A stretch of DNA of 64,000 nt from Mycobacterium branderi (GTDB lineage Bacteria > Actinomycetota > Actinomycetes > Mycobacteriales > Mycobacteriaceae), in assembly GCF_010728725.1 (NCBI RefSeq), contig NZ_AP022606.1, forward strand, positions 1,364,001-1,428,000. Direction: 5' to 3'. The stretch's first letter is position 1; each line of letters starts with the position of its first letter. A program made the translations under genes and the position numbers. Shown piece after piece: positions 36,202 to 39,174 of this stretch. The notes under the pieces are model-generated. The model saw nothing but the letters and a program-made list of their open reading frames with translations. It was not told where the DNA came from and searched no databases.

Positions 36202-37170
36202 ATGCCACCTGCGAAAGCCCGCGCCGTCCGATTCGACCGCTACGGCGGTCGTGATGTGTTGTATGTGGCTGAGATTGACAGGCCATCGCCCGGCGAGGGC
36301 GAAGTACTCGTCGAAGTCATGGCCGCCGGCATCAATCCCGGCGAGGCGGGGATTCGGGTGGGCGCGATGCATGAGATGTTCCCGGCCACCTTTCCCTCCG
36401 GCGAAGGCAGTGACCTGGCCGGTGTCGTGGTCGACGTCGGGCCGGGCGTGACCCAATTCTCGGTCGGTGACGAAGTGCTGGGATTCAGCCTGCGCCGGTC
36501 GAGTCACGCCACCCACACCGTCGTCCCGGTGGAGCAATTGATCCCCAAACCGCCGCAAATGAGTTGGGAGGTCGCGGGTTCGCTCTACGTGGTAGGGGTC
36601 ACCGCCTATGCCGCGGTGCGCGCGGTTGCGCCGCAGCCGGGTGAGACGGTCGCGGTGTCGGCGGCCGCCGGCGGGGTCGGCAGCCTGGTGGTGCAACTGC
36701 TGGTTCAGCGCCGGACGCGGGTGCTCGGTATCGCCTCGGCCCGCAGCGCCGAGTGGTTGCGCAGCCACGGCGTGGTTCCGGTCGAATACGGTGACGGCTT
36801 AGCGGAGCGGCTGCGCGACGCCGCCGCCCCCGATGGCATCGATGCGTTCATCGACCTGTTCGGGCCCGACTATGTCCAGCTTGCCGTCGACCTCGGTGTG
36901 CCCCCGGACCGGATCGAGACCATCATCTCGTTCGCCAAGGCCGCCGAAGTCGGCGCCAAAACCGAAGGCAGCATGGACGCGTCGACGCCGGAAGTGCTGG
37001 CCGAGATGGCCGAGCTGGTGGCCAGCGGCGCAATCGATTTCGACATCGCCGCCACCTATCCCCTCGACCGGGTTGCCGACGCGTATGAACAGCTCGAGCA
37101 GCGGCATACGCACGGCAAAATCGTGCTGCTGCCGCAACCGCTCAACCGATACCAGCCTCGACGATCTTGA
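36202..37170 (+). CDS. NADP-dependent quinone oxidoreductase-like (zinc-less MDR)
   Basis: 322-residue medium-chain dehydrogenase/reductase. The N-terminal GroES-like domain (VMAAGINPGEAGIRVG) lacks catalytic zinc Cys/His ligands, as in quinone oxidoreductases. The Rossmann motif is VSAAAGGVGSLVVQLL, with RSAEWL binding the NADPH phosphate. The C-terminus ends HTHGKIVLLPQ as in the family. It diverges from the lipase gene. Substrate is unknown. Confidence 0.9.
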   Translation: MPPAKARAVRFDRYGGRDVLYVAEIDRPSPGEGEVLVEVMAAGINPGEAGIRVGAMHEMFPATFPSGEGSDLAGVVVDVGPGVTQFSVGDEVLGFSLRRSSHATHTVVPVEQLIPKPPQMSWEVAGSLYVVGVTAYAAVRAVAPQPGETVAVSAAAGGVGSLVVQLLVQRRTRVLGIASARSAEWLRSHGVVPVEYGDGLAERLRDAAAPDGIDAFIDLFGPDYVQLAVDLGVPPDRIETIISFAKAAEVGAKTEGSMDASTPEVLAEMAELVASGAIDFDIAATYPLDRVADAYEQLEQRHTHGKIVLLPQPLNRYQPRRS

Positions 37171-37200
37171 CGACGACCAGCGCAGTGCGTCGAAACCGGG

Positions 37201-37228
37201 CACCCCGGCGGTGGCAGCCGCCGGGGTG
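37201..37228. terminator. GC-rich hairpin between convergent genes
   Basis: CACCCCGGCGG (37201-37211) pairs perfectly with CCGCCGGGGTG (37218-37228) around TGGCAG. It lies between the quinone oxidoreductase end and the end of the leftward small gene. No T-run follows, so it is a structural terminator candidate for either direction. Confidence 0.55.
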
Positions 37229-37243
37229 TCCCGGTCCGACACG

Positions 37244-37435
37244 TCAGTTGCGGTGGACGTCGATGTGGATTGGGTGCCCGCCCAGCGAAGCGGTGATCAC
37301 CGCCGGCGCCATCCGCGACACATACAGGTTGGCCCGCTCCTGCGGAGTCAGGTTGCGGCGTGCCCGCAGCCGGCCTACGGCCCGCCGTCCGGCGTGCAGC
37401 ATTGGTGAAACGCGGTGTGCAACAACGAAAGCCAT
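37244..37435 (-). CDS. small protein downstream of an M-box riboswitch
   Basis: 63-residue basic protein (HAGRRAVGRLRARRNLTPQE, then MAPAVITASLGG). An ideal AAGGAG at 37442-37447 stands 6 bases before the ATG. It lies about 225 bp below the M-box aptamer on the same strand, with a 25-codon ORF between. M. tuberculosis has an M-box ahead of the small gene Rv1535; this could be its homologue, but sequence identity was not checked. Function unknown; magnesium-dependent expression is expected from the leader. Confidence 0.75.
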   Translation of the reverse strand: MAFVVAHRVSPMLHAGRRAVGRLRARRNLTPQERANLYVSRMAPAVITASLGGHPIHIDVHRN

Positions 37436-37486
37436 GATCTTCTCCTTGCCGGTAAGCCCGACCGGCGAGGACTGCGCGAAGACGCG

Positions 37487-37564
37487 TCAGGCGGCGCGAA
37501 GGCCGCGACCGGGTCGGGACGAAACGGAAATGGGCTGCGGATAGGGACAATCGCTCGGACTCAT
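37487..37564 (-). CDS. 25-codon upstream ORF in the M-box leader
   Basis: ATG at 37564 preceded by GGAGG with 8-base spacing, running to TGA at 37487-37489. The peptide begins MSPSDCPYPQPISVSSRPGR and ends GLRAA. It lies between the riboswitch and the downstream small gene, whose RBS is 40 bases beyond its stop and next to a CCGGT/ACCGG hairpin (37449-37465). Such uORFs can link aptamer state to translation or Rho termination. The reading frame and RBS are seen; the role is inferred. Confidence 0.5.
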   Translation of the reverse strand: MSPSDCPYPQPISVSSRPGRGLRAA

Positions 37565-37660
37565 CTCGCCCTCACCTCCTCACGGCCAGGACACACGCGG
37601 GTGTCACCACAGTGCGTGCACAAAGAGGAATGAGCGCCCGCGGCGAATCCGCTGGGCACG

Positions 37661-37825
37661 CACCCCTCTCGTCGGAACTTCGGCACTGCACGGCGTATCC
37701 GGACTGCGTCCGGAAGCCACTTGGGCTCAACCCTTAGACCGGGAAGAGCTGTCCTGACCCGGGGCGTCTCTCGACGTTCGGGGTCAGTGGCCTGTATCCG
37801 TACAGACGCCTCACCTACCGAGGTG
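37661..37825 (-). promoter_or_regulatory. M-box (ykoK) magnesium riboswitch
   Basis: Read on the minus strand, the segment carries the conserved M-box elements in order: GGTAGGTGAGGC, TACGGATACAGGCCACTG, CCCGAACGTCGAGAGACGCC, GGGTCAGGACAG, CTAAGGGTTGAGCCCAAGTG, then GGATACGCCGTGCAGTGCCG and a closing CCGACGAGAGG. These blocks match the Mg-binding core known from Bacillus mgtE and mycobacterial Rv1535/PE20 leaders. The aptamer starts about 65 bp inside the divergent methyltransferase promoter region. At high Mg it should switch off the downstream ORFs. The expression platform is not an obvious intrinsic terminator; a GCGGATTCGCCGC stem follows. Confidence 0.88.
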
Positions 37826-37891
37826 CTGCGCGTTCCATGGTGGCATCCAGCCCGGCGCCCGTCAAACGCAGGCGGCACCTACGCTCAAGAC

Positions 37892-38551
37892 ATGGCTACC
37901 ACCCTGCAGGACCCCAGAGTTGCAACGGCACTCGACCGGATGTACGCCGCGGCCAACGAACAGCTGCCGAAGCTGCGCGAGGGCGGCGGAAGAATTGCGC
38001 AGTCATCCGCCGGCGCACAGGAACGCGCTGACGCGATGAGCGAGTTCTATATCCCGGTGACACCGGAGGCCGGTCGGCTGCTTTACGCGCTGGTGCGGGC
38101 GGCTCGCCCGGCCACGATCGTCGAATTCGGCATGTCGTTCGGTATCTCCGCCATCCACCTTGCATCGGCGGTACGAGACAACGGCAGCGGCCGGGTGGTC
38201 ACCACCGAGCTGAGCGCCAGCAAGATAGCAGCGGCACAACAGACCTTCGCCGAGACCGGATTGGACGACTTGATCACCGTTTTGGACGGCGATGCGCTGG
38301 AGACGCTGAAGGAGCTCGACGGGCCAGTCGACTTCGTCCTGCTCGACGGCTGGAAAGAGCTGTATCTGCCGGTGATCAAGTTGCTCGAACCACGTCTGTC
38401 GACGGGAAGTCTCGTCGTCGCCGACAACACCGAAATGGCCGACACCCAGCCCTATTTGGACCACGTGCGCAACCCCGACAACGGCTACGTCAGCGTCAAC
38501 TTCCACGCCCGGGAAAGCGACAGCATGGAAATCAGCTGCCGCGCCGGGTGA
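37892..38551 (+). CDS. class I O-methyltransferase (caffeoyl-CoA OMT-like)
   Basis: 219-residue SAM methyltransferase. The SAM loop is TIVEFGMSFGISAIHLA, the acidic strand VVTTELS, and the metal-binding Asp in DFVLLDGWKELYLP plus VVADNTEM match the cation-dependent O-methyltransferase family 3. ATG 37892 begins MATTLQDPRV. It overlaps the next methyltransferase gene by 4 bp (GTGA). Its promoter overlaps the start of the divergent M-box leader. Substrate unknown. Confidence 0.88.
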   Translation: MATTLQDPRVATALDRMYAAANEQLPKLREGGGRIAQSSAGAQERADAMSEFYIPVTPEAGRLLYALVRAARPATIVEFGMSFGISAIHLASAVRDNGSGRVVTTELSASKIAAAQQTFAETGLDDLITVLDGDALETLKELDGPVDFVLLDGWKELYLPVIKLLEPRLSTGSLVVADNTEMADTQPYLDHVRNPDNGYVSVNFHARESDSMEISCRAG

Positions 38552-39174
38552 TTAGCCGCAAGCCACCTTTCGGCCGTACGGCCGGGCCGTGGAACGTCAA
38601 TATTCACTACGACGCCAAGCTCGACGCATCCGTGCCCGATGGCGCAGTTTCTGCGCTGGACGTCGGATGCGGTGACGGGTTCTTGGCCGCGCGCTTGTCG
38701 CGGCGCGTACCCCAGGTGGTCGCGGTCGACGTAGACAGGCCGGTTCTGGAGCGGGCCAAACAGCGCTTTGCGGATGCGCCGGTGCAGTGGCAGCACGGCG
38801 ACGTCCTCGTCGCCGCAGGCGAACTGGGCCGCTTCGATGCCGTGGTGTCGAACGCCGCTTTGCATCATTTCCCGGACACCCGCGTGGCGTTGCGGTGCCT
38901 GCGTGACCTCGTAGGGCCCGGAGGGACACTGGCCATCGTGACGTTCGCGCGTGCCGGATGGCGAGATCTGCCATGGGCGTTGCTCACCCTCGCGCTGCGG
39001 GGAATCGCGATCCGGCTGCGCGGCAAGTGGGAACACAGCGCTCCCACGGTATGGCCGCCGTGCGACACCGTTCATCGACTGCGGCATCATGTCCGGGCCG
39101 AACTACCGGGTGCTGAAGTATCGCGACTTCTCTTGGGGCGCATCTTCATCCGATGGCGGGCACCGGCTACCTAA
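38548..39174 (+). CDS. class I SAM-dependent methyltransferase (methyltransf_11/25 type)
   Basis: 208-residue protein starting at the GTG that overlaps the upstream stop. SAM motif I is ALDVGCGDGFLAARL, followed by VVAVDVDRPVLERA, QHGDVLV and DAVVSNAALHHFPD. The C-terminal region has an amphipathic helix (PWALLTLALRGIAIRL). Together with the previous gene it forms a translationally coupled pair. Its 3' end overlaps the convergent acyltransferase gene by 8 bp. Acceptor unknown. Confidence 0.88.
   Translation: MISRKPPFGRTAGPWNVNIHYDAKLDASVPDGAVSALDVGCGDGFLAARLSRRVPQVVAVDVDRPVLERAKQRFADAPVQWQHGDVLVAAGELGRFDAVVSNAALHHFPDTRVALRCLRDLVGPGGTLAIVTFARAGWRDLPWALLTLALRGIAIRLRGKWEHSAPTVWPPCDTVHRLRHHVRAELPGAEVSRLLLGRIFIRWRAPAT

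What the first reader, a model, noticed from the sequence alone, without database searches (positions are those of the whole stretch)
37244..37825. M-box magnesium riboswitch with an upstream ORF ahead of a 63-codon gene
The minus strand from 37825 to 37661 carries the ordered conserved blocks of the M-box aptamer. Below it come a 25-codon ORF with its own GGAGG and a small basic-protein gene with an ideal AAGGAG. No large gene or known Mg transporter follows; the next feature is a hairpin facing a convergent gene. A riboswitch controlling only a uORF plus a 63-residue protein suggests a magnesium-stress micropeptide. The uORF could be the direct target of the aptamer or of Rho.
Basis: partly seen in the sequence, partly recalled or inferred. 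Interest (0 to 1): 0.78.

Follow-up and report, generated by a model that had tools for sequence, protein, structure and literature searches.

The report
Magnesium riboswitch that lost its transporter
A mycobacterial magnesium-sensing RNA switch here sits in front of a tiny upstream peptide and a conserved 63-residue protein of unknown function; close relatives also have a magnesium-type importer gene right after it, which was deleted in this lineage and in several others while the small protein was kept.

Summary
The M-box is real (RF00380, 143.1 bits, cut-off 44) at 37829-37657 minus, and so are the uORF and the 63-codon gene. The 25-codon ORF is the mycobacterial uORF2 (Rv1805A type), which a 2026 paper shows to be the direct target of an M. 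tuberculosis M-box with a translational platform and Rho-dependent termination. That part is known.

The absence of a large gene is secondary. In near relatives the same locus continues with an NRMT-type (magnesium) Nramp transporter. In the window that gene is deleted; its last 12 codons and stop remain at 37180-37142.

The 63-aa gene belongs to a family without a Pfam or NCBIfam model; 101 of 110 fetched family loci have an M-box upstream. Over 54 loci the transporter's presence needs at least 11 changes. In 37 loci found through the neighbouring methyltransferase: both genes 25, small protein only 11, transporter only 0, neither 1. The small protein shows purifying selection after transporter loss.

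Best reading: a reduced magnesium-uptake operon whose small protein has a function of its own. What that is remains unknown; action in trans on another importer is my leading guess.

The parts
37860..37865 (-). promoter -35-like element TTGACG
   Evidence: block TTTGACG kept in at least 90% of 63 aligned upstream regions; place
37837..37842 (-). -10-like element CACCAT with TGC before it, 17 nt behind TTGACG
   Evidence: by position and the TG in the alignment, no transcript data
37657..37829 (-). M-box aptamer RF00380
   Evidence: 143.1 bits, cut-off 44
37661..37670 (-). SD1 (GAGAGGGGTG) in the closing helix of the aptamer
37561..37659 (-). uORF1, 32 codons from GTG, ends in ATGA overlapping the uORF2 start; frame poorly conserved
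   Evidence: frame open in 38 of 141 leaders, control frames 6 and 2
37619..37632 (-). anti-SD / anti-start region
   Evidence: duplex with SD1 -13.1 kcal/mol, 3.6% of 500 shuffles as good; with SD2 -8.7, 43% as good
37590..37605 (-). conserved short stem-loop before SD2
   Evidence: same register in 108 of 148 distinct segments, A-U and G-C both seen at two pairs
37571..37581 (-). SD2 of uORF2
37487..37564 (-). uORF2, 25 codons (MSPSDCPYP...), relative of Rv1805A
   Evidence: uORF2 recognised in 141 of 169 distinct leaders, 140 of 141 with a proline in residues 5-10; paper PMC12810186
37244..37435 (-). 63-codon gene, family with core LTPQERANLYVSRM.....TASLGGHP
   Evidence: 762 relatives at E<=1e-3; no Pfam or NCBIfam match
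37196..37231 (-). GC-rich hairpin behind the 63-aa gene; a similar one stands between small gene and transporter in L199/L214
37142..37180 (-). scar: last 12 codons and stop of the deleted NRMT-type transporter gene
   Evidence: compare L199/L214
36202..37170 (+). convergent zinc-type dehydrogenase-like ORF, syntenic marker
   Evidence: PF13602, PF08240
37892..38551 (+). divergent methyltransferase-like gene, syntenic marker
   Evidence: PF13578

Best explanation
A mycobacterial M-box leader of the translational type that once headed a magnesium-uptake operon: M-box, uORF1/uORF2, small basic protein, NRMT-type transporter. In this lineage about 1.7 kb with the transporter was deleted, while leader, uORF2 and the 63-aa gene were kept. 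Likely working: at high Mg2+ the closed aptamer hides SD1, the anti-SD then covers the uORF2 start region, and Rho ends the transcript; at low Mg2+ SD1 takes the anti-SD, uORF2 is translated and the 63-aa gene behind it is expressed. The 63-aa protein probably serves in magnesium starvation and does not need the neighbouring transporter; most likely it acts at the membrane or on another importer in trans. Shown here: M-box, deletion, linkage to M-boxes, retention. Inferred from the M. tuberculosis work and from base pairing: the switch. Guess: the protein's target.
For: M-box. In G071 (flanking genes 94-96% identical) and G094 the same locus has an Nramp gene behind the 63-aa gene, as have M. 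celatum and Mycobacterium sp. MFM001; the window keeps its 3' end. 101 of 110 family loci have an M-box upstream. At least 11 changes of transporter presence on a 54-row tree, 9 forced by starred branches; remnants read by eye in 10 of 17 junctions. Methyltransferase-anchored loci: both 25, small only 11, transporter only 0, neither 1. Pooled pN/pS 0.32 in four transporter-less pairs. NRMT-type residues in the lost transporter's orthologues. Platform.
Against: No expression or Mg2+ data for this leader. The anti-SD/SD2 duplex alone is no better than shuffles. Constraint looks weaker without the transporter (0.32 against 0.19; single pairs range from 0.13 to 0.77). A 1.6-kb gene is a bigger target for deletion than a 63-codon one. 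At least one locus lost both (L283). At other loci M-boxes precede MgtE or Nramp genes without the small gene (2 and 2 of 55 read).
Confidence: 0.75

Rival explanations
1. One reading: a riboswitch that was always dedicated to a uORF and a micropeptide.
For: Present layout of the window.
Against: Transporter scar in the window and an intact transporter at the same place in sister genomes.
Confidence: 0.03
2. Decaying remnant: after the transporter was lost, leader and 63-aa gene drift and do nothing.
For: pN/pS is higher in transporter-less pairs (0.32 against 0.19); L248 has a changed C-terminus and L263 changes in the core; L283 lost both genes.
Against: The frame is open through the core in 18 of 18 transporter-less rows, with 43.5 synonymous to 33.5 non-synonymous changes over 239 and 580 sites. 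The window M-box has no marked broken pair.
Confidence: 0.12
3. Obligate helper of NRMT: the small protein is a subunit or regulator of the neighbouring transporter and now serves the second NRMT copy.
For: Gene adjacency in 43 of 63 named loci; a second NRMT-like copy (62-65% identical to the query) in 13 of 15 transporter-less genomes tested, the own one included.
Against: G187 and G265 keep M-box and small protein with no NRMT match, and G190 and G105 keep the small protein with none; drafts may miss genes. Some NRMT genes stand behind M-boxes without the small gene (L162, L189).
Confidence: 0.25

Closest known systems
M. tuberculosis pe20 M-box with uORF1/uORF2 (Rv1805A), PMC12810186 (parts 1-4 of 6 of the text and passages read)
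   Same: Aptamer, SD1 at its end, anti-SD, SD2, uORF2 with the conserved proline; Rho termination shown there.
   Different: There PE/PPE genes and mgtC follow; here a 63-aa gene and then nothing. The paper's text does not discuss this small protein where I read it.
'Mn2+-type' mycobacterial M-box class of the same paper
   Same: By synteny the relatives of the window locus fit it: M-box followed by an Nramp-type transporter.
   Different: Transporter deleted in the window. The orthologues I looked at carry NRMT (magnesium-type) site residues, not the MntH ones.
M-box/NRMT operons of Clostridium acetobutylicum, PMC4072509 (passages read)
   Same: M-box, Nramp-related Mg2+ importer and an MgtE-like helper gene.
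   Different: Most M-boxes are described there as controlling intrinsic terminators; no small protein like this one appears in the passages I read.
rv1535-type M-box
   Same: M-box, uORF2 and a short gene of unknown function.
   Different: The short genes look unrelated; both kinds occur in the own genome.

Membership tests
M-box riboswitch (RF00380) | covariance-model score over the gathering cut-off | tested here: met
   143.1 against 44 bits
M-box riboswitch (RF00380) | Mg2+-dependent control of the gene behind it | not testable with these tools
   no expression data
M-box riboswitch (RF00380) | metal-transporter gene behind it (usual, not strict) | tested here: not met
   not in the window; present at the same place in G071, G094, M. 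celatum, MFM001
mycobacterial translational M-box with uORF2 (Rv1805A type) | SD2 and uORF2 with the conserved proline | tested here: met
   MSPSDCP with P at 7; 140 of 141 recognised uORF2 have P in residues 5-10
mycobacterial translational M-box with uORF2 (Rv1805A type) | anti-SD that can pair with SD1 or with the uORF2 start region | tested here: inconclusive
   SD1 pairing strong; SD2 duplex no better than shuffles, but with SD1 removed the fold pairs it with the start codon region; CCTC/CTCC in 138 of 166 spacers, 77.7 expected
mycobacterial translational M-box with uORF2 (Rv1805A type) | Rho-dependent termination in the leader | not testable with these tools
   shown for M. tuberculosis in PMC12810186
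NRMT magnesium transporters (the deleted gene, seen in relatives) | Nramp fold family with Met to Ala, Asn to Gly and Ala to Thr in the ion site | tested here: met
   PF01566; DAGG and TTVAP against DPGN and ATVMP of MntH, read by eye; transport not tested
Rv1535-like short protein | sequence similarity of the 63-aa protein | tested here: not met
   the family search found only the window gene in the own genome although an Rv1535-like 77-aa gene stands behind another M-box there; 'Rv1535-like' is my label from layout, I did not see the Rv1535 sequence
known protein family for the 63-aa protein | match to Pfam, NCBIfam or a solved structure | tested here: not met
   no match

The most novel reading that the evidence does not exclude
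The 63-aa protein is itself a main product of this M-box class: a stand-alone magnesium-starvation protein that mycobacteria keep under the riboswitch even where they have repeatedly discarded the importer beside it.
Probability: 0.35. Interest if true: 0.75.

Novelty: new variant of a known kind. Interest (0 to 1): 0.6.

Why it matters
M-boxes are mostly read as switches for importers. Here a natural experiment, repeated loss of the importer with the switch and the small protein kept, points to an unstudied protein family as the steady partner of the switch at this locus. It makes a question testable: what does a bacterium short of magnesium need besides more import? It also suggests that the 'manganese-type' label of this mycobacterial M-box class should be checked, since the transporters I looked at have magnesium-type site residues.

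Tried and rejected
AlphaFold model of the 63-aa protein: mean pLDDT 59.3, two helices (9-27, 31-50), too weak for a fold search, so none was run. PDB profile search: 0 matches. Phage records: no match. The simple promoter and terminator scan of 36400-38600 found nothing. PF01769 (MgtE) gave no match in the own genome, though an MgtE-like stretch lies in L008. uORF1 as a conserved peptide: frame kept in only 38 of 141 leaders.

Limits of the counts. The 110 loci and the 63 scorable of 64 were selected for the small protein. One search was run against that bias but read 70 loci (the 30 delivered and 40 chosen by me, preferring genomes where the small gene had not been found next to the methyltransferase and including ten known to have an M-box there), not every match. 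38 of the 70 had an M-box by nhmmer; L284 is cut by a contig end; L338 was settled as small-protein-only by eye. L280 had only a weak domain score but its small gene reads plainly. The class counts are my reading of ORF lists: 55 M-boxes (49 of the 50 rows, L171 under the cut-off dropped, plus six of the own genome). The 20 genomes were picked by me from the 152 with an M-box. The tree is a quick one, and a tree cannot tell gain from loss; junction remnants do so for part of the cases. In one search the last ~40 nt of each junction piece are dehydrogenase gene, so short 3' matches there are not transporter remnants, and 8 of 340 shuffles also gave hits. The four pooled pairs were chosen as nearest transporter-less pairs; L246 and L247 have different junctions, so their losses may be later than their split. 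Other pairs with a transporter-less member reach 0.47 (L218/L257), 0.52 (L240/L261) and 0.77 (L247/L254). The Rv1535-like, PE/PPE and MgtE-like labels come from reading sequences and layout, not from a family search.

Full report
What is there. The minus strand carries a full M-box aptamer at 37829-37657 (RF00380, 143.1 bits, cut-off 44). Before it stand TTGACG (37865-37860) and, 17 nt on, CACCAT with TGC in front (37842-37837); the block TTTGACG is kept in at least 90% of 63 aligned upstream regions. Behind it come SD1 in the closing helix, an anti-SD, a short stem-loop, SD2 and a 25-codon ORF, then the 63-codon ORF at 37435-37244.

The uORF is known in kind. PMC12810186 (parts 1-4 of 6 of the text; passages) shows for the M. 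tuberculosis pe20 M-box a translational platform, Rho-dependent termination and a conserved uORF2 with a proline at position 7. The window's MSPSDCPYP has it. Among 169 distinct leaders from my loci I recognised uORF2 in 141, and 140 of these have a proline in residues 5-10. The window's anti-SD pairs with SD1 at -13.1 kcal/mol, matched by 3.6% of 500 shuffles; its duplex with SD2 (-8.7) is matched by 43%. With SD1 removed, the predicted fold pairs the anti-SD with the uORF2 start codon region. CCTC or CTCC occurs in 138 of 166 spacers where 77.7 are expected, and a five-pair stem-loop before SD2 stands in the same register in 108 of 148 distinct segments, with A-U and G-C both seen at two of its pairs. 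Mg2+ and Rho control in this species are inferred.

Other M-boxes. The own genome has six over the cut-off: one before an Rv1535-like gene, three before PE/PPE genes, one before a Stealth protein, one in the window. In 20 genomes that I picked from the 152 with an M-box, plus the own genome, I read 55 M-boxes: 15 before the 63-aa family, 15 before an Rv1535-like gene, 17 before PE/PPE, 2 before MgtE-like and 2 before Nramp genes without the small gene, 1 before mgtC, 2 before Stealth, 1 other.

The 63-aa family. No Pfam or NCBIfam model matches. A profile finds 762 proteins at E<=1e-3. 108 of 297 genus genomes carry one; RF00380 is in 152 of the 297. Of 110 fetched family loci 101 have an M-box upstream on the same strand, 100 of them 179-362 nt away and one at 898. 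Of the nine without, L015 starts near a contig end, and six (L013, L032, L098, L101, L143, L145) showed no RF00380 over the cut-off in a direct test; L111 and L128 were not tested that way. Members behind an M-box also occur in records titled Rhodococcus oryzae and Skermania.

The missing transporter. In G071 (flanking genes 94-96% identical) and G094 an Nramp gene lies directly behind the 63-aa gene; in G071 the dehydrogenase follows it. M. celatum DSM 44243 and Mycobacterium sp. MFM001 have it too. In the window the small gene is followed by 73 bases before the dehydrogenase frame; the end of the lost gene, LVVVKIVEAGIG and stop, is still there at 37180-37142, and a local search matches both sides of the gap to these relatives. 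About 1.7 kb is missing compared with MFM001. The relatives' transporter is PF01566 and, by eye, has Gly for Asn, Thr for Ala and Ala for Met at the positions that PMC8806188 (passages) names for NRMTs. PMC4072509 (passages) links such transporters to M-boxes and Mg2+ import, and warns that one member transports manganese rather than magnesium.

Repeated loss. Of 64 titled loci 63 could be scored: M-box in 61, Nramp behind the small gene in 43. On a quick tree of 54 rows from the neighbouring genes, Nramp presence needs at least 11 changes, 9 forced by starred branches; the window and M. kyorinense DSM 45166 are sisters (99) and both lack it. By eye 10 of 17 junctions keep transporter remnants with differing ends (window, L212, L238, L244, L246, L247, L248, L254, L261, L268) and seven show none; one search supports part of these, clearest for the window, L212, L246 and L261.

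Without selecting for the small gene. Of 70 loci found through the methyltransferase 38 had an M-box and 37 could be scored: both genes 25, small only 11, transporter only 0, neither 1. None of the 32 without M-box showed the small gene in the stretch read. The small frame is open through its core in 18 of 18 transporter-less rows; L248 has a different, longer end and L263 changes in the core. Four transporter-less pairs pooled give 43.5 synonymous and 33.5 non-synonymous changes, pN/pS 0.32, against 0.19 for six pairs with transporter; single pairs vary widely.

What it does. All 15 transporter-less genomes given to (own one included) lack the copy that belongs to this locus (83-88% identical to the query in the eight control genomes that have it); 13 of 15 have the second NRMT-like copy (62-65%). 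G187 and G265 keep M-box and small protein with no NRMT match, and G190 and G105 keep the small protein without either. This speaks against an obligate NRMT helper, with the reserve that G187, G265 and G190 are drafts. The structure model is too weak to help. I favour a magnesium-starvation protein acting at the membrane or on another importer, and mark that as a guess.

Novelty. The switch and uORF2 are published. I saw no paper on this small protein family in the listings of searches; that library lacks most subscription papers.

Noticed in passing
L006/L009, own genome C1:3803925-3804097 plus; L191 (G250): An M-box stands directly before a Stealth-family gene (PF11380, PF17101-PF17103) with no recognisable uORF2.
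   Followed up: partly
leaders in L020, L021, L022, L023, L029, L069, L076, L084, L094, L130, L131: A GC-rich repeat of about 45 bases (GATCGCAAGCGCGGCGAAGCCGG...) is inserted inside the M-box, in the loop of its last hairpin; twice in L094.
   Followed up: no
L112, L116, L117, L118 (G050, G148, G156, G242): Two or more copies of the small protein gene lie near one M-box, with MgtE-like or Nramp genes.
   Followed up: no
L008, own genome C1:4108026-4127667: Cluster of three M-boxes with PE/PPE genes and, between them, an MgtE-like gene and the second NRMT-like gene.
   Followed up: partly
L222 (record titled Rhodococcus oryzae): Two divergent M-boxes; a 68-aa relative of the small protein behind one of them, no Nramp match in the stretch, a histidine-rich protein next.
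   Followed up: partly
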